A DNA stretch of 64,000 nucleotides from a virus, in the IMG/VR virus record IMGVR_UViG_3300044949_001245, positions 1-64,000 of that record; one strand, written 5' to 3'. The notes beneath the pieces were generated by a model. The model was given only the letters and a program-made list of their open reading frames with translations, was not told the origin of the DNA and made no database searches. The position numbers and the translations under genes were made by a program. Each line of letters begins with the position of its first letter. Position 1 is the first letter of the stretch. This document shows positions 10,897-24,683 of the stretch, one piece after another.

Positions 10897-12093
10897 TTAC
10901 AATCTTCTTAATACAGTTGCTTGATATGCAAAATCGCTTTCCGTTGGATAGTAAAATGGATTCAATGTTCCAGATATATTCTCCAAAACTATCCCTTGAA
11001 TGTTCATCATCACAAACCCTCTAAATCTTGGCAATTGACCTCTTGGAATATCCACATAAGTGTTCGGGAAAAACATATTGTCTATGACACGTCTAACTCC
11101 AGTTACTGCCTTAACCGCATTCACCAAGTCCATATTGTCTATGAAATCCCCATCTTTCCAAAATCTATGGTCTATCAATTTACTCAAATTTATTTGCGCC
11201 TGTTTACGAATTTCGTCAGTTGAAAATCCAGGTTCAATATCTACACGACAGCTAACATCTATGGGAAAGTAAGTCACATTGACGAACTTTATTCCATAGT
11301 TCAAAAGTCCATTCGGTTTGAACTCATTCATGTTTAGCCATTGGTCAGCTTTCAGCAAGAAATCTCCCAACTCTGATGGGGTGAAATTCGCTCCATTAAC
11401 ACTTCCGACACCTAGACATAAATCGCCCACGTTATCCAAGCCATAGTTGTAAACACGCAATACATTAGGATTGGACTTTCTGAGAACTTGTTCCATATAT
11501 TGTAGTGTTCCTCTGGCCAACACATTTATTTCTTCCTTGATGCGCTCTCTAAACATCTCATCATCCTCCGCATCCCTACCGCCAGTTGCCATGTACTCAT
11601 TTATACAGTATTCATGTCCTGATGGAATAGGGGCAACTTTGTTGATTGTCAAAGGATTGACGTTGGTAAATGAACCATTAGGTATGCTAGCAAGTTTCAC
11701 GTATGAAAAACCCTCTTGTGGTATGGTAACCATCTGCTGTACTGCGAAATCTACACCTTGTCCTGTGAATGTATGTATTCCAGGAATGTAAGTTGTACCA
11801 GGTGTGCCGGCAACACGAACATATGTAGAACTTCCTATTGCTGCCATCCTTGGAGCAACCCCCCTTAAATCCGCCATGGTGTCCAAATACGAACCAAACG
11901 CTGAATCAGGAAACAGGTGTGTTTCAATTACTGCGACATCCTTTAACACTTTCTGCGCCAATTTGGCCGCACCAAAAGCTATTCCGTTGAGAACTGAACC
12001 CTCAGACACTTTAGTGACTAGGTTTGTCTGATTGAGCAAAGTTTCTACAAAAATCTGCTTCAATTCATCTACTGGTGTTATTCTTGTAATCAT
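10897..12093 (-). CDS. baseplate J-like wedge protein
   Basis: 398-residue baseplate wedge protein of the P2 gpJ / T4 gp6 type. The diagnostic segment ATGGRDAEDDEMFRERIKE lies near residues 170-188. The flanking layout fits too: helical N-terminus, beta domain with a GTPGT turn, and a C-terminal ferredoxin-like part. It would form the inner baseplate ring around the hub. It overlaps the preceding gene by 4 bp (ATGA). Confidence 0.85.
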   Translation of the reverse strand: MITRITPVDELKQIFVETLLNQTNLVTKVSEGSVLNGIAFGAAKLAQKVLKDVAVIETHLFPDSAFGSYLDTMADLRGVAPRMAAIGSSTYVRVAGTPGTTYIPGIHTFTGQGVDFAVQQMVTIPQEGFSYVKLASIPNGSFTNVNPLTINKVAPIPSGHEYCINEYMATGGRDAEDDEMFRERIKEEINVLARGTLQYMEQVLRKSNPNVLRVYNYGLDNVGDLCLGVGSVNGANFTPSELGDFLLKADQWLNMNEFKPNGLLNYGIKFVNVTYFPIDVSCRVDIEPGFSTDEIRKQAQINLSKLIDHRFWKDGDFIDNMDLVNAVKAVTGVRRVIDNMFFPNTYVDIPRGQLPRFRGFVMMNIQGIVLENISGTLNPFYYPTESDFAYQATVLRRL

Positions 12094-13019
12094 ATTGTTA
12101 CGCTATTTACAATGACTAAATCTCTTTTTGTTGATACTTCAAATTCGATGAAGACATCTCCATCTTTGTATTTCACATTTCTCATTTTGAAGTTTTTGAA
12201 TAAGTCATCGGTTTTGAAAATCTTTTCCAATTCTTTACCGATGATTGGAAGATTGGTCATAGCCAAATTACTTCCTGTCCAATAATTTCCATTCGTTCCA
12301 AGCCATGGATACTCAGGCACATCCCTTTTCTTTAGCTGACATAAAATATCAACAGTTTGATACACTGTATCTTTATACCCTAGAACTTTCAAATCATCAT
12401 TTTGAAACGTCAAAAGTCTGTCTACATCCTTTCCATAAATTCTATCGCCTATTGTATAATCAATCATGGAAGTGACTAGTGCCATCTGGAATGAGGTATC
12501 AGTCAACTGGATTTGTGTTCCGCCATCTATATCCCAATCAATCTCTCTCAAATCATTGTCTATGGCTATTTCTTGAGCCTTATTGTGAAAGTTTGCTGAA
12601 CCTAGTTGGTCTATGGCTATGTCCTCAAGTGTCTCATTGGCAGACATTGTGTATTGATAGTTGTACCCAGCCTTTACTTTTCCTTTTATGTAGCTGGAGC
12701 GCAGGTATTTCGGCAAATTTTGCACATATTGAATATGAGTTCTTATGTCCTCAATACCATCCAACAACATCCAAAAATCACAAGTGTTCAATATCTTGCT
12801 GAAGTTCTTAAAAATCGCCAAAATCTTTACACTTTCCTCTTCCAACAAGTCCAGTTCCTTTAGATATTTTTTATCTAAATACTTTGATTTGCCGCTGTAG
12901 AATGCTGATATAATGGGCAGACTAGTTCCAAGGAAATCCTTGGCTCTGAACACAAAACTTCCCAAATCATAATTAGTGATTTTGAAAAATTTATCGTATG
13001 TTTCTTGAGTAACTAGCAT
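12090..13019 (-). CDS. baseplate protein with LysM-like segment and gp25-like C-terminus
   Basis: 309-residue protein. Around residues 125-170 there is a LysM-like pattern (YTMSANETLEDIAIDQLG...AQEIAIDNDL), as in XkdP/gp53-type tail proteins that link the hub to the wedges. The C-terminal ~130 residues resemble gp25/GpW-type wedge sequence (fast-changing middle, then FKMRNVKYKDGDVFIEFEV). Direct linkage to baseplate J supports a wedge role. Both domain names are tentative. Confidence 0.7.
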   Translation of the reverse strand: MLVTQETYDKFFKITNYDLGSFVFRAKDFLGTSLPIISAFYSGKSKYLDKKYLKELDLLEEESVKILAIFKNFSKILNTCDFWMLLDGIEDIRTHIQYVQNLPKYLRSSYIKGKVKAGYNYQYTMSANETLEDIAIDQLGSANFHNKAQEIAIDNDLREIDWDIDGGTQIQLTDTSFQMALVTSMIDYTIGDRIYGKDVDRLLTFQNDDLKVLGYKDTVYQTVDILCQLKKRDVPEYPWLGTNGNYWTGSNLAMTNLPIIGKELEKIFKTDDLFKNFKMRNVKYKDGDVFIEFEVSTKRDLVIVNSVTI

Positions 13020-13768: not shown

Positions 13769-14227
13769 TCATATCCATGTTAAAGTAATTCCACTTGTAT
13801 TGTTAATAGCTGTACCTGTCTTAAACCATAGGTCTATCATGCTAGAAAGCAATTCTGCTATGGTGGCAGAGTCAGCCCCCGCAAAACCTACCGCAAAAAT
13901 CGGTTCAAATAATGGTGGTGTAACTGGCGGCACTCCTGTGAATGTTGGCGCCATCCCTCCCGCAAGAACAGTTGCGTATTCAATTAGTCCCAATTTGAAG
14001 GCATCTACTCCTAAATTTTCTGCCAAAAGCAATTTAGCCTTTAGTGCTTGCCTAGCTGCTGGCGATGTGGTTGAAGGTGGAGTAACCAGACTAGCGTAAT
14101 TATCAATTGCTATGCTCCAGCGTTCAGCTGCCTCCACCACACTAGATGGGAACTGGGTGAACCCTGAATACTCTTGGTCTATAATAGATTGGATTCCATC
14201 CTTCAATGTCGGTTTGAGTAAAGCCAT
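13769..14227 (-). CDS. hypothetical baseplate-region protein
   Basis: 152-residue Ala/Pro-rich protein, helical at both ends with a Pro-rich centre (TGVPPVTPPLFEP). It overlaps the spike gene by one base. No family is recognised; similar small proteins sit beside the spike in many myovirus baseplates. Confidence 0.65.
   Translation of the reverse strand: MALLKPTLKDGIQSIIDQEYSGFTQFPSSVVEAAERWSIAIDNYASLVTPPSTTSPAARQALKAKLLLAENLGVDAFKLGLIEYATVLAGGMAPTFTGVPPVTPPLFEPIFAVGFAGADSATIAELLSSMIDLWFKTGTAINNTSGITLTWI
13803..13814 (-). promoter_or_regulatory. candidate late promoter element (TACAGCTATTAA)
   Basis: The site lies inside the 3' end of the preceding gene, 36 bases upstream of the start at 13767. 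The coding context lowers confidence. Confidence 0.25.
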
Positions 14228-15210
14228 CAGTCAGTGTTTGTTAGTTCTGATAATATGTCCTTCAACTGTTGTTTGATTTGAATAAAGGTGGCAGAGTTCA
14301 CTGGCGTTCCACTTGGACCAAAAGCAGTTGGAACAGTCAATTGCGTTATTCCATCAATAATTTCTTCCAACTTGCCTACCAATGTATCACCTTTGACCAT
14401 CGGTTCAGCACTATCCTCTTCTCCAAAAATTATTTTTTTTGAGTCCTCAGCTTTTATTTGAATTCTATTTTCATTTATGTAAACTTTATTATTGAATTCA
14501 TCTTCATATAGCAAACGCTCAGTTTCTTCTTCCAGATTGCTGTTTAGAACAACTCTTGCTCTAGTTTTTCGGTCAACACCTGTAACTCCTATTTCAATTT
14601 TATCATTCGATAAAAACACCGCCCTTTTTGAAGCATTCAATAAATACTCGCCATCACTCTCCACTATAAATTGAGCAGTTGGCTCTCCCGCATTACCACT
14701 TGCTCTGAATACTATTCTAGGCACTTTTTCCGCTTGCTCACTCCGAACTGTGATGGTCAAGGTAGCATTCGCTGGATTCATGTCTATATCAACCATGTTG
14801 CCTGTATCAGACACTTTTGTAGTTCTTTTTTGAAACTCTTGAAGAGGATGGAAATCATCCTCATGTTTCAAACAGGCAACCACTATGGGCTCATTGTGTT
14901 TAGGTATGTTTACCCAAACGACTGGTGTTCCATGTTCTCCAGGTTGTGTTGGAAATTTTATTCTTTGTAGAACTTCCCTATCAATAAGCACACTGTGGAA
15001 ATATCCGTGTCCATAACCTCCATAAATCGAACACCTACCTGTCCTGTAACAGTCCTCTTTGTATTCTGTTGGATCAACTCCAGTTGGGATTATCAAAAAA
15101 CCAACTCCAGCAGACAAATTGCCACTAGGTATTTCACGCACGCCAATTTCTTCATCATCTATGCGCTCAGGCAAGTCATTTTCTAAAATCCAAGGCTTGT
15201 TAAAAAACAT
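14227..15210 (-). CDS. baseplate central spike-like protein
   Basis: 327-residue protein with an OB-fold-like N-terminal half, including HGTPVVWVNIPKHNEPIVVA near residues 92-112. This is followed by repetitive beta segments (residues ~130-255) that could form a triple-stranded needle, and a helical end AFGPSGTPVNSATFIQIK typical of gp5/gpV-type spike proteins. It would pierce the outer membrane during injection. No lysozyme domain is present; cell-wall cleavage is probably supplied by the neighbouring hub gene. Confidence 0.72.
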   Translation of the reverse strand: MFFNKPWILENDLPERIDDEEIGVREIPSGNLSAGVGFLIIPTGVDPTEYKEDCYRTGRCSIYGGYGHGYFHSVLIDREVLQRIKFPTQPGEHGTPVVWVNIPKHNEPIVVACLKHEDDFHPLQEFQKRTTKVSDTGNMVDIDMNPANATLTITVRSEQAEKVPRIVFRASGNAGEPTAQFIVESDGEYLLNASKRAVFLSNDKIEIGVTGVDRKTRARVVLNSNLEEETERLLYEDEFNNKVYINENRIQIKAEDSKKIIFGEEDSAEPMVKGDTLVGKLEEIIDGITQLTVPTAFGPSGTPVNSATFIQIKQQLKDILSELTNTD

Positions 15211-15214
15211 ATCT

Positions 15215-17266
15215 TTAATCTTTTATTCCACATTTGTTGAATTGTCTTCTCTGAAGAAAGTATTGAAAAACAGGGTCATTCACTCTCCAACCAACACCCT
15301 TCACTTCCTTTTCAATTTCTTTGTCTTTCATCCATTCATCCATTACAAAAAACGCAACCCTTTGATACGCTTTTCTTTTTAGGTCACCTGCTGTCTTGTC
15401 ATCCAAAAAGGCTTTTTTCTCTCGCTCAGTGAATGTTTTAACTCCCCTTGGAATGATGGATATTTTCTTTTCAATTGCTGCTCTATTTTCACTTGGGTGT
15501 TTCTTAATGTATAAATCAACTATGGCAGTCCTTAATGTCTTCGCCCTATTCGTTGGAAGTGTGCTATTATTCACGCCACTGTCTGAGTCTATGTAACCAG
15601 TACATCTAAATGTAGGACAGCTTGGATATTTCTCTATCAAAGAAACAGCATATTCAATTTGTCTATTATTTTGGGCAACTAAATCCGCACGTAATGATGG
15701 AAATGCTTTAATTTGTTTCTCCATTTTTTTATCATCCGTATCTTTAGCTGGTGGCCAAGTTTCATTCAAATCAATCAGATATGGTCTGTCATTATCAAAA
15801 TATACATAAGCAACATCCTGTTCTATTTTTTCCTTTACAATCTCTTTTCTAGGTGGAGGATTGTCAAAAAGTATTAAATTCCAATAATTGAAATCATCAG
15901 TCTTTTCTGGCGCAAGACAGTGTCGTATCTCCATACCTCTCGACACTTGAAGAGTTGTTACCCATTCTTCACTACCATCAACCACAGTATATCTATGACT
16001 AACAGCGTCAACATAGAAAATTTCCATGGTTGGAGCATAGGTTATTTTATGACCTCTTTTTATTCCGAAACAACCTCTCAATACAATGCTCCCCTCCCTA
16101 GTAAATGGAAGATACATATTTGACTCAACCATGTATCTTAAATCCTCCAAGGCTTTCTCTTCCATTATTCTGCCATCGCTGATTTTCACAAAGCTCAAAT
16201 AATTACTGACTTGTGAATTGGGTTTTGAGCCCCAAACTTGAGCATATTCTTCAAAATATACTGCCGTTATGTGAGCAAAAATTTGGTTCTCATCTGAGAT
16301 AAATGAGCCCTTTGGTATTATTTGATACCAGCTATAAATTGGACCATTATACCACTTCAAGTCATCTGATATCACACTAGTTTCATGAATAACACCTTGG
16401 TCCATCAATGAACCCCACCAACCATTGTAATCAAATGGTGCTCTCCTTGTAAAAAAGTAAAATTGGTTTCCAAAAGTGTCTCCATAGAATTGCATCCATG
16501 GGTCTTGTACGACTTTTCTAACAAAATTTATCAAACTGCCCTGATTGGTAGCAAGTGAGCTGTCAGCAATAAGTTGAGAAACGCTCCACCTATCAGACAC
16601 CATCTTTACTATCTGCCATATGCCGACCGCATTAACCTCTTCGACATTCTTGATTGGCTCATTAGGCAAAATCTTTTCTCTTTTGTATTCCTCAACTTTT
16701 ACATCGTATGTTTCTGTTCCAATGTCAGTATTCCAATTGGGATTTTGAACTTGTTGTGATGGCGTGGCTTGATTTGCGTCATCAAGCAGGATGTAACCAT
16801 CAGCATCAAACATTTTAGCCTTCCATCTTCTTTTTACTTCTTTCCAACCTAATCCAAAATGGCAGTCAAAATGGTGTTGCTCATTGGCTATATTCCAGTC
16901 ACCGCCCCAATTCATTCCTAATGCTTTGGCTATTTTAGCCACTTTGCGCATATGCTCTTTATCCCTTGAGAACTCCTTTCCATTCCATGAACGTAAGTCC
17001 ATAGCAAGGCCAATCTCATGTGAACTAAATCCTGGGGGTGACGCTAAAATTCCGTTGTTACGACCAGCCTTATATTCTTTGTATAAATAGTCTTGTTGAG
17101 CATAAGTTCTAAATCCTGAGTACATACGCAACTCCATGCCGACAGCCCTACATTGCGCATCAAATTGTATCATAATAGGTCTGAACTTCGGGTGAAGTGG
17201 GTATCTACGCACTCCATCTACTACTCCCCCATTGATGAATTTCAAATTTCTTTCTAGTTGACTCAT
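15215..17266 (-). CDS. baseplate hub subunit with M15 peptidase and OmpA-like domain
   Basis: 683-residue three-part protein. Residues 1-145 are a VanY/M15 D-Ala-D-Ala carboxypeptidase-like domain. It has the zinc motif SSHEIGLAMD (His83, Asp90) and the later E-x2-H signature (Glu129, His132). The middle (~200-480) resembles the C-terminal part of gp27/gpD hub proteins (YVDAVSHRYTV segment). From about residue 485 the sequence follows an OmpA-like peptidoglycan-binding domain: VYFDNDRPYL strand, then CTGYIDSDSG with a downstream N-x2-RA (TNRAKTLR). It should cut and grip peptidoglycan during tail penetration. Its start shares one base with the upstream partner gene. Confidence 0.8.
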   Translation of the reverse strand: MSQLERNLKFINGGVVDGVRRYPLHPKFRPIMIQFDAQCRAVGMELRMYSGFRTYAQQDYLYKEYKAGRNNGILASPPGFSSHEIGLAMDLRSWNGKEFSRDKEHMRKVAKIAKALGMNWGGDWNIANEQHHFDCHFGLGWKEVKRRWKAKMFDADGYILLDDANQATPSQQVQNPNWNTDIGTETYDVKVEEYKREKILPNEPIKNVEEVNAVGIWQIVKMVSDRWSVSQLIADSSLATNQGSLINFVRKVVQDPWMQFYGDTFGNQFYFFTRRAPFDYNGWWGSLMDQGVIHETSVISDDLKWYNGPIYSWYQIIPKGSFISDENQIFAHITAVYFEEYAQVWGSKPNSQVSNYLSFVKISDGRIMEEKALEDLRYMVESNMYLPFTREGSIVLRGCFGIKRGHKITYAPTMEIFYVDAVSHRYTVVDGSEEWVTTLQVSRGMEIRHCLAPEKTDDFNYWNLILFDNPPPRKEIVKEKIEQDVAYVYFDNDRPYLIDLNETWPPAKDTDDKKMEKQIKAFPSLRADLVAQNNRQIEYAVSLIEKYPSCPTFRCTGYIDSDSGVNNSTLPTNRAKTLRTAIVDLYIKKHPSENRAAIEKKISIIPRGVKTFTEREKKAFLDDKTAGDLKRKAYQRVAFFVMDEWMKDKEIEKEVKGVGWRVNDPVFQYFLQRRQFNKCGIKD

Positions 17267-18909
17267 TATTCTGTTATATTTTCATCCTGACCCTCTTTAT
17301 TCTGTACTGGCTCTTCAATCTCTACTTGAAATTTTGTCCTTAAATCTCCGTATGAATCAAAAACTTTAGATTGACAAATTTCAATATTGGAAAGGGTGCT
17401 AATCAATAAATTCATTATGTATCCTACATTTCTTGCTTCTACATTATACATGGATTCAATCATACCTACAGTCAGCAGTCTGTTTACGCCACGCCATCCT
17501 GATTCACTTGCTTTATTGAAAGCATTAACGTCATCCCCACGTCTTGGTAAATCTATGTTGTTAAAGGCAGTTTGAGTTTGTTTTGGATTGGCATAGCTTT
17601 TTTGAAAAAAGAATGAGCCATCTTCTATTAGCAGCTTCATAAGGTCACGGCCAGCTATCTGTATCGTGACGTCAGTATTTTCCGCTGTACATGATAGTGA
17701 ATTAGTGTCCACTAACGCAATTTGCATATTGCTTAATTTAACAATATCATCTACATTTCTAACAAAAGGATGTGCGTATTTTTCCTCATCTGTCCCATAC
17801 TCCAATCCGCCAATAAAAACAATATCATTTTCAGATATCACATTATGAAAGAAAAAATCCTCTCTAAACCACCAAAAACTTCCATATGGTTTAGGTCTAT
17901 CACTTTCATATAGAAATTTATCATAAAGATTGACACGACTATCGAACTGAACTGCCTGCGCCCTTTGTCCATAAGTTTCACGTTGTTTTTCTGATTCAAA
18001 GGCATCTGTTAATTCAATCAACTTTTCCTTATTGGCTTCACTCATCTGCCAATTTATTGTTGATTTGAAAGTGTAGTTTTCAATATTGTTAGACATGAAT
18101 TTGATGTAGCTGGTTTCATCAACCTCCCAAATTCCAGTTGGTAAACCTAAACTACAAGGCAAAGTTCCTATCACTGGCGGCAGAGTAATTGAAAAAGAAC
18201 CAGCTTGCTCCGTTTGATTGACTGATAAATTCATCAGGAATGGGGTCAAATCTATCACTGAGAACTTGTTGAATTCATCTGTCTCAACAGGTGAATCCAT
18301 CTTTCGTATTCCTAGACTTGCTAGTGCTTTACACCAAACCCAAACCCTCAGTCTTTGATATTCTTTATGTACTATTCCCCTAGCGCCAGTGTCTCTCAAG
18401 AATGAACTTGAATTTCCATCATAATACAACCAAGAATTTACATCTAAATTGCCTGTTGTTTCTTTGAGTTGTCTATGTATTCGACCTATTTCGGCTGAAA
18501 ATACAAAATTTTCATTATCCTCATTTCCACCCTCTCCCACTTCTCTTGGTCCAAAATTGTAACCACCACTATCTATCAACAGTAAATTAGATTGGCTGGG
18601 CAAAATATCTCTTTGAAGTTTGCTTGACTCTACATGTAAAATTATTGGCCAACGAACTGGGTGAGCACTCCCTATATCATCAACACTTTTATCGGTTGGC
18701 TCACCCTTTTCGTTTACATACCCCAATCTTTCTTTAGTGGCGTTGTCGTACGCATCTAGGATTTTTTGCTTGTTGGTGACTCCCTTATCATCCTTACTTT
18801 TCAACCAATCATTTACATCTTGGTTTATCTTGTAGAACTTATGTATTTCACCAGCACTAGCATCCCAACCAACTTCGCCATTATATGGTAACTTTATTAT
18901 TTTACTCAT
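17266..18909 (-). CDS. baseplate hub subunit (N-terminal hub part)
   Basis: 547-residue protein directly upstream of the M15/OmpA hub gene. The segment VTIQIAGRDLMKLLIEDGS (about residues 425-443) matches the SGRDLmkLL-type sequence in the N-terminal half of gp27/gpD hub proteins. An N-terminal extension of ~100 charged residues comes first. Together with the next gene this looks like one hub protein carried on two reading frames, overlapping by one base and likely made in equal amounts. Confidence 0.68.
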   Translation of the reverse strand: MSKIIKLPYNGEVGWDASAGEIHKFYKINQDVNDWLKSKDDKGVTNKQKILDAYDNATKERLGYVNEKGEPTDKSVDDIGSAHPVRWPIILHVESSKLQRDILPSQSNLLLIDSGGYNFGPREVGEGGNEDNENFVFSAEIGRIHRQLKETTGNLDVNSWLYYDGNSSSFLRDTGARGIVHKEYQRLRVWVWCKALASLGIRKMDSPVETDEFNKFSVIDLTPFLMNLSVNQTEQAGSFSITLPPVIGTLPCSLGLPTGIWEVDETSYIKFMSNNIENYTFKSTINWQMSEANKEKLIELTDAFESEKQRETYGQRAQAVQFDSRVNLYDKFLYESDRPKPYGSFWWFREDFFFHNVISENDIVFIGGLEYGTDEEKYAHPFVRNVDDIVKLSNMQIALVDTNSLSCTAENTDVTIQIAGRDLMKLLIEDGSFFFQKSYANPKQTQTAFNNIDLPRRGDDVNAFNKASESGWRGVNRLLTVGMIESMYNVEARNVGYIMNLLISTLSNIEICQSKVFDSYGDLRTKFQVEIEEPVQNKEGQDENITE

Positions 18910-20816
18910 TTTGAACCATTTTTTCTAACACCTTTGGTCGTTGGACTCACAGGCAAATTTCCATATGAATTAGTAACATTTACTTTTACAGTGTTGTTAG
19001 TCAACCAATTTTCTAGGCTTGTCGATATTGTTCCAATTATGGACTGAAATCCAGATAACATCTCACTCATAGCACTATTCATAGTGCTTGCTTCTGACGC
19101 AGCGAACTCCTTACTCAACGTACCTTTTCGCCCTTTCTGAATTGGCTTCTTTCCAGTCATATAGCCAGAGAAATCACCACTCGTCATGGCTCTTTCATAA
19201 AGCTCCATATCATACTCCGACTGAGGATTGAAGAATGAGTATAAAAGGTCATCCCTAGCCATTTGGTTTCCTTGCGTCCAATCACCCGACATTTTCATGA
19301 ACTGTTCGATGTATTTCGGGTCATCTGAATTAAATCGAACAAATCTGCGTAACTCAGCAGGATTGTATGCTAAATCTGGGTGTGCTCTCTTGGCTGCCTC
19401 ATACTTCATTAACATCAAGTTGTCGCCACCACCCTCTCCTAGTCCTTGAATAGTTTGGGCAAGAAAGTCACCAGATTTTTCTCCTTTTTGAGAAAGTCCT
19501 ATTGATTCAAAAGCAGCCAACATCCTCAATGAAGAGTCAACATCGACAATATCACGTTTGGTACGTTGAATACTCATCAATGTTTGTTGAGTTTGTAACT
19601 TTTCAGTCAAAGTTGCCAAATCACCCTCTTTCAAACTACTTTCGTTGATTGAGGTCAACACATTTAATACGTCAAGTGAAATATCAGTTGCCTCCCTCTG
19701 CTGAGTTGTGAACCTTTCAAATGAGTTAAAAATGCCGGCATCAGCACCGAATGCTTTATTGAATTGTAAATCCTCTAGTGTTCGCCTTAAAATGTCTGGG
19801 CCAGCTATTCCTGTTTCACGACCTTTTATTTCAGCTGCTTTCAAAAAGTCCTGTGGATTCAACCCCATTGACGTGGCCATCCCAGTTCCGTAATTCCCTT
19901 GTGCTTGGTCTATCAGGCTAAACATTTGAGTTGAACCTGAGTAACCACTCCCTCTCAATGAACCAACTCCTTGACCAGCAGCGTAAACTTGGTCACTTTG
20001 ACTTAAAAGGGCATAGGCTGCTGCTATCACCGATGCAGTTGCTGTTGCGCCCTTTGACCCCCCTAGTAATCCACCCGCAGCCCTACCAGTCTGTATGCTG
20101 GTTGCTGCCAAGTTAGCACTGGCTATTGATTGAGCCAACTGTGAGTAATTTATTCCTGTTCCATCCTCACCGCCTTTACCCCCTCTTGCTCCACCGCCAT
20201 CCATCTCACGCATGCGTTCTTTGTTGGCAGCAATCCTTGCGTTTATATCATCTAAATCCTCTTGACTTTGGGCAGTCAATCTTTGTTTTTGTAGGTCTTT
20301 ATTTTCTTGAACTAAAGTTCCATACAAGCCACCTTTACCACCCTCTTCAAACTCTTTCTTATCACGTTGCGACCTCTCCCTGTCTAATTTACGCTTGTCC
20401 ACCATCTCACGGACAATCAAGCGCAAATGCATGTTCATTTCCTTTTCAATTTCAGCCAACTCTTTCTGCTCTTGAGATGTAGCTTCAGATTGTGCTCCTT
20501 CAAAAAGTTCTTTTTGCTTCTTGAATTCTTTTTTGGAAATTTCGCCCCGACTGAATTTTTCCTCTTGCTCCTTGAATTCAGCAAGATTGGATTGACGCAC
20601 TTCAGCGTACTCCGACTTGACTTGCTCTTGTTTTGCTCTCAGTGCACCTTTTGCTTCACGCTCAACTGTAACCTTTTGCTCAGTTGGAGTCATTTCAGAC
20701 AATCGGTTGAGGTCTGTTACATCCCTACCTAGTTGTTGAACCTTTTGGCGCAACGCATCTAGCTGAGAACCCAATCCGTCATCACGACCTCTTATATTTA
20801 CATTAACTTCAGCCAT
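18906..20816 (-). CDS. tail tape measure protein
   Basis: 636-residue tape measure. The first ~210 residues are a long, highly charged coiled coil. A Gly/Ala-rich hydrophobic stretch follows (about 235-290, with GLLGGSKGATATASVIAAA), then alternating helical segments. It lies immediately after the tail-assembly chaperone pair, the usual position. At roughly 0.15 nm per residue, the rule of thumb for tape measures, it would set a tail of about 95 nm. Confidence 0.82.
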   Translation of the reverse strand: MAEVNVNIRGRDDGLGSQLDALRQKVQQLGRDVTDLNRLSEMTPTEQKVTVEREAKGALRAKQEQVKSEYAEVRQSNLAEFKEQEEKFSRGEISKKEFKKQKELFEGAQSEATSQEQKELAEIEKEMNMHLRLIVREMVDKRKLDRERSQRDKKEFEEGGKGGLYGTLVQENKDLQKQRLTAQSQEDLDDINARIAANKERMREMDGGGARGGKGGEDGTGINYSQLAQSIASANLAATSIQTGRAAGGLLGGSKGATATASVIAAAYALLSQSDQVYAAGQGVGSLRGSGYSGSTQMFSLIDQAQGNYGTGMATSMGLNPQDFLKAAEIKGRETGIAGPDILRRTLEDLQFNKAFGADAGIFNSFERFTTQQREATDISLDVLNVLTSINESSLKEGDLATLTEKLQTQQTLMSIQRTKRDIVDVDSSLRMLAAFESIGLSQKGEKSGDFLAQTIQGLGEGGGDNLMLMKYEAAKRAHPDLAYNPAELRRFVRFNSDDPKYIEQFMKMSGDWTQGNQMARDDLLYSFFNPQSEYDMELYERAMTSGDFSGYMTGKKPIQKGRKGTLSKEFAASEASTMNSAMSEMLSGFQSIIGTISTSLENWLTNNTVKVNVTNSYGNLPVSPTTKGVRKNGSK

Positions 20817-21168
20817 CTGCGTTATTATTTTGACCCTTTACTGTATTATATCTGCTGAGGTCTATGTTGTCGAAATCCTTATCAATTTCTTGCTTGGACA
20901 TCTTCTTGCCTTGTTTTGTTTTATACAAGCTGGACTCCAACTCTTGGGTGTCGCCATCCGTACTTTCTTGTGAATACCATTTACGCAAGATTTTCTCTTC
21001 ATAGTATTCATAGTACATCTGTATGAAGTTTGCCTTTCGGTGAGTTTCACTCCCGAATGGAACATTGTACTTTTTGCGCCACCAATAGTCAATTGGCCAC
21101 TGTTTGTTCCAATTTACTATGAACGCATGAACTTGTTCTTTGAGATTATTTTTCCTGTTCTTGTCCAT
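20809..21168 (-). CDS. tail assembly chaperone, second frame (GT-like)
   Basis: 119 residues if initiated at the ATG at 21168, although the frame is open further upstream. It overlaps the first chaperone gene in the +1 (equivalently -2) frame and ends just inside the tape measure gene, the classic place for a gpT-type extension. It may be made mainly as a frameshift fusion with the upstream gene. The protein is basic and aromatic-rich (DYWWRKKY) with a charged tail. Confidence 0.65.
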   Translation of the reverse strand: MDKNRKNNLKEQVHAFIVNWNKQWPIDYWWRKKYNVPFGSETHRKANFIQMYYEYYEEKILRKWYSQESTDGDTQELESSLYKTKQGKKMSKQEIDKDFDNIDLSRYNTVKGQNNNADG

Positions 21169-21529
21169 CGCCCTCATCAATTTCATCGGTATCGAAATTG
21201 TAAAGGTCATCGACAATAGGTTTGTACCACTTCAGGAAATTCTGCTTGAAATCTTTAACAATTTGTTTAGCAACAAATGGGTCAACCTCTCGCCAATTTT
21301 TGACCTTCAAATCGTGTTTTAGTTCTGGGACTAACACGCTAAAATAAGCAAGTGCGTCAGCAAGGTCAAGCGCAAAGGCTTGTGTCCTTAATCCACCGAT
21401 GGCCATTTCTACATATCTGCCTCCTGTGATTGCCAACTTGAATGCTTCGATGTCTTGGAGTTGACCTACGTTGGGAAATTCGACATCATAGTCATTTCCG
21501 CAAATGTTTACAATTGTTCTCTTTACCAT
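21146..21529 (-). CDS. tail assembly chaperone, first frame (G-like)
   Basis: 127-residue protein with a beta-hairpin N-terminus (TIVNICGNDYDVEFP), helical middle and acidic C-terminus. It lies two genes before the tape measure, as gpG-type chaperones do. It would bind the tape measure and recruit tube subunits without entering the virion. The coding end carries an A-run directly before the stop, where a frameshift could join it to the next frame. Confidence 0.68.
   Translation of the reverse strand: MVKRTIVNICGNDYDVEFPNVGQLQDIEAFKLAITGGRYVEMAIGGLRTQAFALDLADALAYFSVLVPELKHDLKVKNWREVDPFVAKQIVKDFKQNFLKWYKPIVDDLYNFDTDEIDEGDGQEQEK
21147..21154 (-). other. possible programmed frameshift site
   Basis: The minus-strand sequence GAA AAA TAA forms the end of the first chaperone frame. 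Slipping -2 on the A-run, or +1 at the stop, continues into the second frame as AAT AAT CTC. No classical -1 heptamer leads into that frame. Shift or simple coupling cannot be told apart from sequence alone. Confidence 0.4.
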
Positions 21530-22724: not shown

Positions 22725-24683
22725 TTAAGCACTTAAATTAGCATCAAGCATGAACCCTGTAACGAATATCTTATTGATTGGACCATTCGGAACATACGCA
22801 TACTTGACATCGTAATAATCTTGAATCAATCGTACAGTTACATTCTTAAACGTGATAATCAAGTTATCAGTTGAGTCTGTCGCTGTTCTTGAAATCAAAT
22901 AACTCGTCACGAATGATTTTACATCCGCTGGAGTGATTGTTCCGATGTTGTTGCCTATGAATAAAGGTCTCATGTTCAAAATGAGTTCTTTGTTCAGCTG
23001 GGCAGCAATTCGCATAACGGAAATCTCAAATGAAGTCCCATCTGGGTTGATAAGCTGAGTGTTCCGTTGTAGTGAGTTGATTCCTTGATTCACTACGTTC
23101 CCAATTCCTGGTACAAATCGGTTATGGAGAACACCAGCTTGTAGTGCTTTCTCTCTTTCTTTTTGTCCCAAAGGATGAATAAAGTCAGTCCAAGTCAAAT
23201 TCTTAAATGTTATCGGTTGTTGTGGCTCCAAACCTCCTAAACGACCTACCACATTTGCAGCGTGATAGATTGAGTCTAGTTTCTCTACCCCACTTCCTCC
23301 AGCGATGGCTCTTTTAACTCCACTATGAACCACTACAACACTTGTTGTATCGAAAAATTTAGCAATTTCAATAGATGAGTCAGGCACGTTCTCAAATTTA
23401 GTGATATCACTACCGCCTCCAACAATCATGAACTTCGTCATCTCAGCATCAGTCTTAATGTGGTTGAGAATTTTCACGTTTTGAGTTCCTGTTGCTTGAG
23501 AACCCCAGCGGTCAGAAAGGAAAAATGTATTGTCTAGTTCCTTAATGGTTTCCAAAGTGTCATCTAAATCAATCGCACCATAGTTTGTAGTTCCGCCAAA
23601 AGCAAGATTCAAGTTTGTCCAGTTACTCAAATCCACTGCGTCAACCAAACCAGTTCCGTTTATCACCCAGTTATCATCTAGCTTAAATCGTTGATTGAAA
23701 GCAAAATCATTTTTTGCCCACTGAATCAAAGGGTCAATATTGTCAAACTCTACTGATGTAGCAATCAAGATAGGGGCAGATAATTGAGGACTCAAACCTC
23801 CGATGTGGTTTCCAGCCATGTCTAACCCTCTGTACGTTCCCTCATAGAACTTAATCATGAATTTGTTCGGGTCATTATCACCAGGTGTCATTAAAGCAGC
23901 ATATCCTACTGCTAGTTGAGTTCCGTTTACACCTCCAGAAAATTGAGTCACGCTTGTCGTTACTGTACCAGTTGTAGGCGCAGAAATCACCCAGCCGTTA
24001 GCAGCAGCTCCAGATATTGGTCTTGCTACTAAAATAATCTCTCCAGCCTGTTCATATGCGGTGTAGCCAACGTTTGCTGCGTTCAAATCTGATATCAAAA
24101 GTGCTCTCAAATCGGATGGCGATGTTGTAATAGCAGTTGATGTAACTAAAGGAATTGCTCCAGAGCCTTCATCGACAGCTATCGTAACACTTGAACCTAT
24201 CACTATTGGACCACTCACTGAAACTTTACCTTTGGCTAAAATTTCATCCTCATATCCATTCCCACATTGACCCTCATTCTTACACAAGAAATTAACAGAA
24301 CCTCCGTTTGGACCACCTCCAACAAAGCCATAACCTATTTGGGCTGGAGTTGTATTCGCTGCTCTAGTAAGATAAACTGTTTGTGGTCCATTTGCCCCAG
24401 ATGCTGGTGAGAAAATGTATCCTGCTAAATCATACAAAAGTCCGCCACGCACGAAATTTTGGAAATCACTTACATCGGAAAATGAATAAACTGATGAAAG
24501 TCCTTCATCCATAGCTCCATTCATTCCTGAACCGCCTCCATATTTTGCGCCCGAACCAGTGTCGATGATGCAGACATTCCCGAATGAGAATGTGGTTGGC
24601 TGAGGTGGAATACCGCTTTTAACAATCGCATATACTCCAGGCTCAATTATTCTTTTGCCGCCAAAATTTACTATCGTTGCCAT
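22725..24683 (-). CDS. tail sheath protein
   Basis: 652-residue contractile sheath protein, which identifies the phage as a myovirus. The N-terminus has the sheath signature IIEPGVYAIVKSGIPP. The C-terminal region carries the conserved end (ELILNMRPLFIGNNIGTI, then TDNLIITFKNVTVRLIQDYYDVKYAYVP). The variable middle, Gly-rich near residues 50-70, would face outward. Gene order sheath then tube is normal. Confidence 0.9.
   Translation of the reverse strand: MATIVNFGGKRIIEPGVYAIVKSGIPPQPTTFSFGNVCIIDTGSGAKYGGGSGMNGAMDEGLSSVYSFSDVSDFQNFVRGGLLYDLAGYIFSPASGANGPQTVYLTRAANTTPAQIGYGFVGGGPNGGSVNFLCKNEGQCGNGYEDEILAKGKVSVSGPIVIGSSVTIAVDEGSGAIPLVTSTAITTSPSDLRALLISDLNAANVGYTAYEQAGEIILVARPISGAAANGWVISAPTTGTVTTSVTQFSGGVNGTQLAVGYAALMTPGDNDPNKFMIKFYEGTYRGLDMAGNHIGGLSPQLSAPILIATSVEFDNIDPLIQWAKNDFAFNQRFKLDDNWVINGTGLVDAVDLSNWTNLNLAFGGTTNYGAIDLDDTLETIKELDNTFFLSDRWGSQATGTQNVKILNHIKTDAEMTKFMIVGGGSDITKFENVPDSSIEIAKFFDTTSVVVVHSGVKRAIAGGSGVEKLDSIYHAANVVGRLGGLEPQQPITFKNLTWTDFIHPLGQKEREKALQAGVLHNRFVPGIGNVVNQGINSLQRNTQLINPDGTSFEISVMRIAAQLNKELILNMRPLFIGNNIGTITPADVKSFVTSYLISRTATDSTDNLIITFKNVTVRLIQDYYDVKYAYVPNGPINKIFVTGFMLDANLSA

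What the first reader, a model, noticed from the sequence alone, without database searches (positions are those of the whole stretch)
15215..18909. Two-gene baseplate hub carrying an M15 peptidase and an OmpA-like peptidoglycan-binding domain
The hub-like sequence is split over two frames joined by one base. The second gene adds a VanY/M15 zinc peptidase at the front (SSHEIGLAMD) and an OmpA-like domain at the end. A cutter and an anchor on one tip would let the tail cleave and hold peptidoglycan while crossing a Gram-negative wall. I know of no standard hub with an OmpA-like end.
Basis: partly seen in the sequence, partly recalled or inferred. Interest (0 to 1): 0.75.

Follow-up and report, generated by a model that had tools for sequence, protein, structure and literature searches.

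The report
Phage tail hub with wall anchor
This uncultured virus, whose relatives infect Bacteroidota bacteria, carries on its contractile-tail tip a cell-wall-cutting enzyme and, unusually, a copy of the domain bacteria use to grip their own cell wall, so the tail may both cut and hold the wall while injecting DNA.

Summary
Two overlapping genes (TAATG) encode the two halves of one gp27/VgrG-type baseplate hub. Relatives encode the same hub as one ORF, and a fused relative's AlphaFold2 model matches solved hubs, best phage phi812 (E=7.5e-15) and including T4 gp27. The second gene adds an M15 zinc peptidase with intact active-site residues at its N-terminus and an OmpA-like domain near its C-terminus. 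The window's own OmpA-like stretch falls below Pfam cut-offs, but the family is secure: two relatives exceed the Pfam cut-off, a family profile finds OmpA structures (best E=4e-7), and the model matches OmpA (target TM 0.67). The residues aligned with OmpA's diaminopimelate-binding Asp and Arg are kept (Asp 8/9, Arg 9/9). In 43 non-redundant relatives the hub is a modular chassis: M15, M23, GH24 or transglycosylase-like enzymes occupy two main slots. The OmpA-like domain occurs in one supported clade (97/94), appears gained once, and is missing from one member, so it is an optional accessory. No OmpA-bearing hub appeared among 50,697 phage-collection records or in the papers found. Best reading: a peptidoglycan anchor beside a peptidoglycan cutter on the hub. 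Binding and activity are untested. New variant of the hub-hydrolase design.

The parts
17266..18909 (-). Hub N-terminal half (547 aa), first gene of the split hub
   Evidence: hhalign of its family to the N half of fused one-ORF hubs: 99.9%, E 1.3e-33; co-linear alignment A9
15215..17266 (-). Second gene (683 aa): M15 peptidase + hub C-terminal half + OmpA-like insert + conserved C-terminal motif
17264..17268 (-). TAATG junction: stop of the first gene overlaps start of the second by one base
   Evidence: sequence; the same kind of tight junction with varying spacing in 14 relatives
16832..17197 (-). M15 (VanY/L-Ala-D-Glu endopeptidase-like) domain, residues about 24-145; putative zinc ligands H83, D90, H132, putative catalytic E129
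   Evidence: Pfam VanY 1.9e-11; Ply500 2vo9 by profile 1.2e-12 and by Foldseek 1.8e-6; motif conservation
15920..16642 (-). Hub C-terminal half, residues 209-449
   Evidence: hhalign to fused hubs 100%, E 6.5e-48; fused relative's model matches phi812, diffocin and T4 gp27 hubs
15308..15820 (-). OmpA-like domain, residues 483-653; D560 and R574 align with the diaminopimelate-binding D271/R286 of A. baumannii OmpA
   Evidence: family profile vs PDB OmpA 4.4e-7; Pfam OmpA above cut-off in L022 and L030; Foldseek 4rha; alignment of 9
15239..15289 (-). C-terminal hub motif WRVNDPVFQYFLQRRQF (residues 660-676), kept in L007 where the OmpA-like insert is absent; similar motifs end most fused hubs
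14227..15210 (-). Next gene, position of the central spike (327 aa)
   Evidence: synteny in the relatives; profile gave no significant PDB hit, so spike identity is inferred from position
18906..20816 (-). Preceding gene (636 aa), likely tape measure by position
   Evidence: synteny; no decisive family hit
22725..24683 (-). Tail sheath (contractile tail)
   Evidence: phrog_279 tail sheath 8.9e-27

Best explanation
The two genes encode the two chains of one trimeric baseplate hub (gp27/VgrG type) of a contractile-tailed phage whose relatives infect Bacteroidota. At the split, the second chain gained a new N-terminus carrying an M15 zinc peptidase. Just before its C-terminal hub motif it carries an OmpA-like domain. 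When the sheath contracts, the hub-spike complex crosses the outer membrane. The M15 domain then cleaves peptide stems of the peptidoglycan, while the OmpA-like domain binds diaminopimelate-containing stems. That binding would keep the cutter on the wall and hold the tail tip in place while the tube passes through. Shown here by sequence and structure prediction: the hub identity, the split, the two domains, preserved active and ligand residues, and that the modules are exchangeable accessories. Inferred: trimer geometry, enzymatic activity, peptidoglycan binding and the anchoring step.
For: Each half aligns with one part of fused relatives. The fused model (pTM 0.71) matches hubs of phi812 (E 7.5e-15), diffocin, 80alpha, Milano, T4 gp27 and VgrG. 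The M15 motif HxxxxxxD...ExxH is intact. OmpA fold. Asp and Arg equivalent to the diaminopimelate-binding D271/R286 (PMC6572160) are kept in 8/9 and 9/9 domains, although mean pairwise identity is 30%. In relatives the same positions hold other wall enzymes: M23, GH24 lysozyme, SLT-like, M15. The hub tree puts the OmpA-like domain in one supported clade of ten, 97/94, fitting one gain with one loss in L007. Nearest annotated relatives are Bacteroidota: Chryseobacterium and Bacteroides phages and Chitinophaga genomes. The domain's nearest solved relative is a cellular OmpA-family protein, 5wtp.
Against: No binding or activity data. L030 has Asn in place of the Asp. L007 lives without the domain, so it is not essential. 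LysM folds in other baseplates may serve structural roles (Mu), so a wall-binding fold in a baseplate need not bind wall. The hub core of P0001 itself was modelled at low confidence, and the orientation of the accessory domains is unknown.
Confidence: 0.6

Rival explanations
1. The OmpA-like domain targets the M15 enzyme to its substrate, as the cell-wall-binding domain of an endolysin does, and has no mechanical anchoring role.
For: All 16 clear split hubs begin the second gene with an added domain, 15 of them M15 or M23 peptidases. The OmpA-like domain occurs only in that set.
Against: Split hubs with M23 or M15 and no OmpA-like domain exist (L007, L036, L043, L057). Sequence alone cannot separate this reading from the anchor reading.
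Confidence: 0.2
2. The OmpA-like domain is a structural brace or contraction latch. It docks on the wedge before contraction, like the hydrolase dumbbell of diffocin or the pyocin ripcord, and does not bind peptidoglycan.
For: In diffocin the accessory hydrolase domains bind the wedge periphery and are proposed to act as a ripcord (PMC11329794). LysM in Mu gp43 is treated as a structural component (PMC11915804). L030 has lost the Asp.
Against: The ligand Asp and Arg are among the few conserved positions in a domain with 30% mean identity. L007 and the fused hubs without it show no need for a brace. The same slot in other relatives holds wall enzymes, so the position favours wall-acting modules.
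Confidence: 0.18
3. Sequencing or assembly artefact: a frameshift split one hub gene, or host OmpA DNA was joined by mis-assembly.
For: A one-base overlap can look like a frameshift.
Against: 14 other loci show both genes with different spacings and intact starts. The insert sits inside the same hub, mostly in a syntenic baseplate operon, in nine contigs from several metagenomes.
Confidence: 0.01

Closest known systems
Diffocin hub-hydrolase CD1368 (PMC11329794; PDB 8v3w)
   Same: gp27-type hub carrying peptidoglycan hydrolase domains on the same chain in a contractile machine; structural match to the fused relative's model
   Different: One chain; two enzymes (transglycosylase and NlpC/P60) at the C-terminus; Gram-positive target; no OmpA-like anchor; hub not split
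Staphylococcus phage phi812 hub (PDB 9euf/9eug)
   Same: Best structural match to the fused relative's hub model, 729 alignment columns, E 7.5e-15
   Different: 12% identity; Gram-positive host; the chain was matched as a hub and no OmpA-like domain is known to me in it
T4 gp27-gp5 cell-puncturing device (PDB 1k28)
   Same: gp27 hub fold; a wall enzyme travels with the tip
   Different: In T4 the lysozyme is on the spike protein gp5 and not on the hub (general knowledge); no OmpA-like domain
Hubs of Bacteroides phages DAC16/SJC03 and Chryseobacterium phage MA9V-3
   Same: Homologous hub with the same gene order
   Different: Single ORF; no module seen in DAC16/SJC03; a transglycosylase-like module before the C-terminal motif in MA9V-3
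OmpA C-terminal and TagL peptidoglycan-binding domains (PDB 4rha, 3td3, 5wtp, 7bba)
   Same: Same fold by profile and Foldseek; Asp and Arg of the diaminopimelate site kept
   Different: Those anchor the outer membrane or the T6SS membrane complex to the cell's own wall; here the domain is on a phage tail hub
LysM-bearing baseplate proteins (Mu gp43, Milano gp25)
   Same: A wall-binding-type fold in a contractile baseplate (PMC11915804)
   Different: LysM on the tube initiator and not on the hub; LysM fold and not OmpA; role possibly structural

Membership tests
gp27/VgrG-type baseplate hub | Hub fold with two tube-like domains, shared with T4 gp27 | tested here: met
   Fused homologue model matches phi812, diffocin, T4 gp27 and VgrG hubs with E 7.5e-15 to 5.8e-7; window halves align co-linearly to it
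gp27/VgrG-type baseplate hub | Trimer that adapts the tube to the spike | not testable with these tools
   No complex prediction available
gp27/VgrG-type baseplate hub | Gene order with sheath, tape measure, spike and gpJ-like wedge | tested here: met
   Sheath phrog_279, Baseplate_J 3.4e-13 and a weak tube-initiator match PF23980, synteny in relatives; spike and tape measure by position only
Peptidase M15 (VanY / L-Ala-D-Glu endopeptidase) | Family profile match above curated cut-off | tested here: met
   PF02557 44.3 bits against 25; PF13539 37 bits against 25
Peptidase M15 (VanY / L-Ala-D-Glu endopeptidase) | Zinc ligands His, Asp, His and catalytic Glu/Asp | tested here: met
   H83, D90, E129, H132, conserved in the M15-bearing OmpA-clade relatives L004-L007 and L010
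Peptidase M15 (VanY / L-Ala-D-Glu endopeptidase) | Hydrolysis of peptidoglycan peptides | not testable with these tools
   Needs zymography
OmpA-like peptidoglycan-binding domain (PF00691) | Profile match above curated cut-off | tested here: inconclusive
   Not met by the window protein alone; met by L022 (31.2 bits) and L030 (30.1 bits) against 27.2; family profile to PDB OmpA 4.4e-7
OmpA-like peptidoglycan-binding domain (PF00691) | Beta-alpha-beta-alpha-beta-beta fold of OmpA-C | tested here: met
   AlphaFold2 blocks over the core mostly at pLDDT 70-94; Foldseek 4rha E 7.7e-4, target TM 0.67
OmpA-like peptidoglycan-binding domain (PF00691) | Asp and Arg that bind diaminopimelate | tested here: met
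   D560 and R574; Asp in 8 of 9 and Arg in 9 of 9 hub domains
OmpA-like peptidoglycan-binding domain (PF00691) | Binds peptidoglycan | not testable with these tools
   Needs pull-down or calorimetry
Hub-hydrolase (diffocin type) | Hub and wall hydrolase in the same chain | tested here: met
   The M15 domain shares a chain with the hub C half

The most novel reading that the evidence does not exclude
A phage tail tip that carries a captured diaminopimelate-binding OmpA anchor beside a wall peptidase. The modular hub lets phages of Bacteroidota trade cutters and anchors, and in this clade the tip grips the host's own wall-attachment sites while it crosses the periplasm.
Probability: 0.5. Interest if true: 0.68.

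Novelty: new variant of a known kind. Interest (0 to 1): 0.55.

Why it matters
How contractile phages keep hold of and pass the Gram-negative wall is poorly known, and hub-borne wall modules have mostly been discussed for Gram-positive targets. A hub with a defined ligand pocket (two residues) and a natural relative lacking the domain (L007) makes the question of whether a tail tip anchors to peptidoglycan directly testable by point mutation. The 43 non-redundant hubs compared here give a catalogue of naturally interchangeable wall modules on one hub.

Tried and rejected
P0002 alone as a search query found no relatives in viral contigs. The window protein alone gives no OmpA hit in Pfam, so relying on the single sequence would have missed the domain. 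L012 is an unrelated M15 endolysin and was dropped. A first genome scan found nothing; a second with a broader hub profile found two Chitinophaga genomes. OmpA hits in the phage collection were spot-checked. Those in MaAM05 and EcoM-613R3 lie among flagellar or other bacterial genes. MT835494 looks by eye like a Bacteroidales element. Phage G gp249/gp250 lie near gyrase and transporter genes and not by a baseplate. None of these was a hub; not all hits were checked. An OmpA profile scan of viral contigs could not be run because the domain is too divergent for the pattern method. L035 (hub near a contig end, N half not seen) and L073 (broken ORF) were set aside as unclear. A Leptospira prophage paper raised by the literature search says only that an OmpA-like protein is absent from those prophages. 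Profiles of the spike-position gene and the 309-aa neighbour found no solved structure. Complex prediction of the two chains was not available.

Full report
WHAT IS THERE. The window is part of an 88.6-kb uncultured virus record. On the minus strand, 17266-18909 (547 aa) and 15215-17266 (683 aa) overlap by one base in TAATG. They lie in a syntenic tail operon with a sheath (phrog_279, 8.9e-27), a gene with a weak tube-initiator match and a Baseplate_J gene. Tape measure and spike are assigned by position only.

ONE HUB IN TWO CHAINS. A profile of the first gene aligns with the N half, and a profile of the second gene with the C half, of single-ORF proteins in Bacteroides phages DAC16/SJC03 and Chryseobacterium phage MA9V-3 (hhalign 99.9%, E 1.3e-33; 100%, E 6.5e-48). 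An alignment of 25 proteins is co-linear across fused and split forms. AlphaFold2 of a naturally fused relative, L023, with that alignment gave pTM 0.71. Foldseek against PDB returned hubs of phi812 (E 7.5e-15, 729 columns), diffocin, an Anabaena contractile system, 80alpha, T4 gp27, Milano and VgrG. The split is biological: 14 relatives with both genes complete have spacings of -4 to +6 nt.

THE CUTTER. Residues about 24-145 are an M15 peptidase (VanY 1.9e-11; Ply500 by profile 1.2e-12, and by fold 1.8e-6). The putative zinc ligands H83, D90 and H132 and the putative catalytic E129 are invariant in the five-row family alignment (motif scan).

THE OMPA-LIKE DOMAIN. The window sequence alone gives no Pfam hit. 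Relatives settle it. L022 and L030 pass the Pfam OmpA cut-off (31.2 and 30.1 bits against 27.2). L005 and L011 match weakly at the same place. A family profile finds 5wtp, 5wtl, OprF and A. baumannii OmpA in PDB at 4.4e-7 to 1.2e-5. The AlphaFold2 model of P0001 has the expected strands and helices at residues 484-653, with core blocks mostly at pLDDT 70-94, and matches Salmonella OmpA-C (E 7.7e-4, target TM 0.67) and TagL. D560 and R574 align with D271 and R286, which bind diaminopimelate in A. baumannii OmpA (PMC6572160). Asp is kept in 8 of 9 hub domains (Asn in L030) and Arg in 9 of 9, at 30% mean pairwise identity. Nine columns are fully invariant, among them the G, L and RA of the OmpA signature.

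A MODULAR CHASSIS. Scans with hub profiles gave 49 loci in viral contigs and two Chitinophaga genomes. From these and earlier loci, with the window, I analysed 43 non-redundant hubs. Two main slots take modules: the junction between the halves, and the position just before the C-terminal motif. In all 16 clear split hubs the second gene begins with an added domain: M15 in seven, M23 in eight, an unassigned domain in L011. In fused hubs the pre-motif slot holds M15 (L025, L026, L068, L075, L076), GH24 lysozyme (L027, L063), an SLT-like lysozyme domain (L069), M23 plus GH24 (L050), a transglycosylase-like domain (MA9V-3), or nothing. The OmpA-like domain occupies this slot in nine split hubs that, with L007, form one supported clade (97/94), consistent with one gain and one loss. 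L007 keeps M15 and the C-terminal motif but lacks the insert, and no OmpA-like domain was found elsewhere in its 97-kb contig; the only hit there is the flanking hub sequence included in the profile. The OmpA-like domain is therefore an accessory and not part of the hub core.

HOW IT PROBABLY WORKS. Shown by sequence and prediction: hub, split, both domains, preserved key residues, exchangeability. Inferred: three copies around the hub, release on contraction, cleavage of peptide stems by M15, and binding of diaminopimelate stems by the OmpA-like domain, so that the tip stays on the wall while the tube passes. Pure enzyme targeting and a structural latch remain open. The latch has precedents in the diffocin hydrolase/ripcord proposal (PMC11329794) and the LysM of Mu gp43 (PMC11915804).

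NOVELTY. Hub plus hydrolase on one chain is known (diffocin). A hub with an OmpA-like domain was not found among 50,697 phage-collection records by tblastn with two hub domains and a bacterial OmpA-family query. The cases examined, such as phage G gp249/gp250, were not hubs. The literature searches found no description. These searches have limited sensitivity: tblastn misses remote relatives and the paper library is incomplete. I rate it a new variant of a known kind.

Noticed in passing
L050, L053, L025 hub ORFs (L050:4195-8061, L053:3325-7167, L025:4171-7587): Hub ORFs with further module arrangements: M23 plus GH24 in tandem before the C-terminal motif (L050), M15 ahead of the whole hub (L053), and a roughly 170-aa insert of unknown fold at the half-half junction (L025).
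   Followed up: partly
L011:7003-7570: The second hub gene starts with an unassigned ~180-aa domain where relatives have M15 or M23 (contains IERMFRLETGHF); no Pfam or PHROG match, possibly an uncharacterised wall enzyme.
   Followed up: partly
window 12090-13019: 309-aa baseplate gene downstream has a LysM-like stretch; one of twelve relatives matches Pfam LysM (2.4e-4) and one matches Sheath_initiator, so a second wall-binding-type fold may lie in the same baseplate.
   Followed up: partly
window 20809-21529: Two small overlapping ORFs upstream of the likely tape-measure gene look like the tail-assembly chaperone pair often made by programmed frameshifting.
   Followed up: no
L025:9426-10613: A 395-aa ORF that looks by eye like a TnpB/IS605-type transposon protein sits inside the baseplate operon of this relative.
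   Followed up: no
L022:6736-7368 matched against PHROGs: phrog_7897 (and weakly phrog_7537), function unknown, carry C-terminal regions similar to this OmpA domain, so phage OmpA-like proteins exist that are not annotated as such.
   Followed up: no
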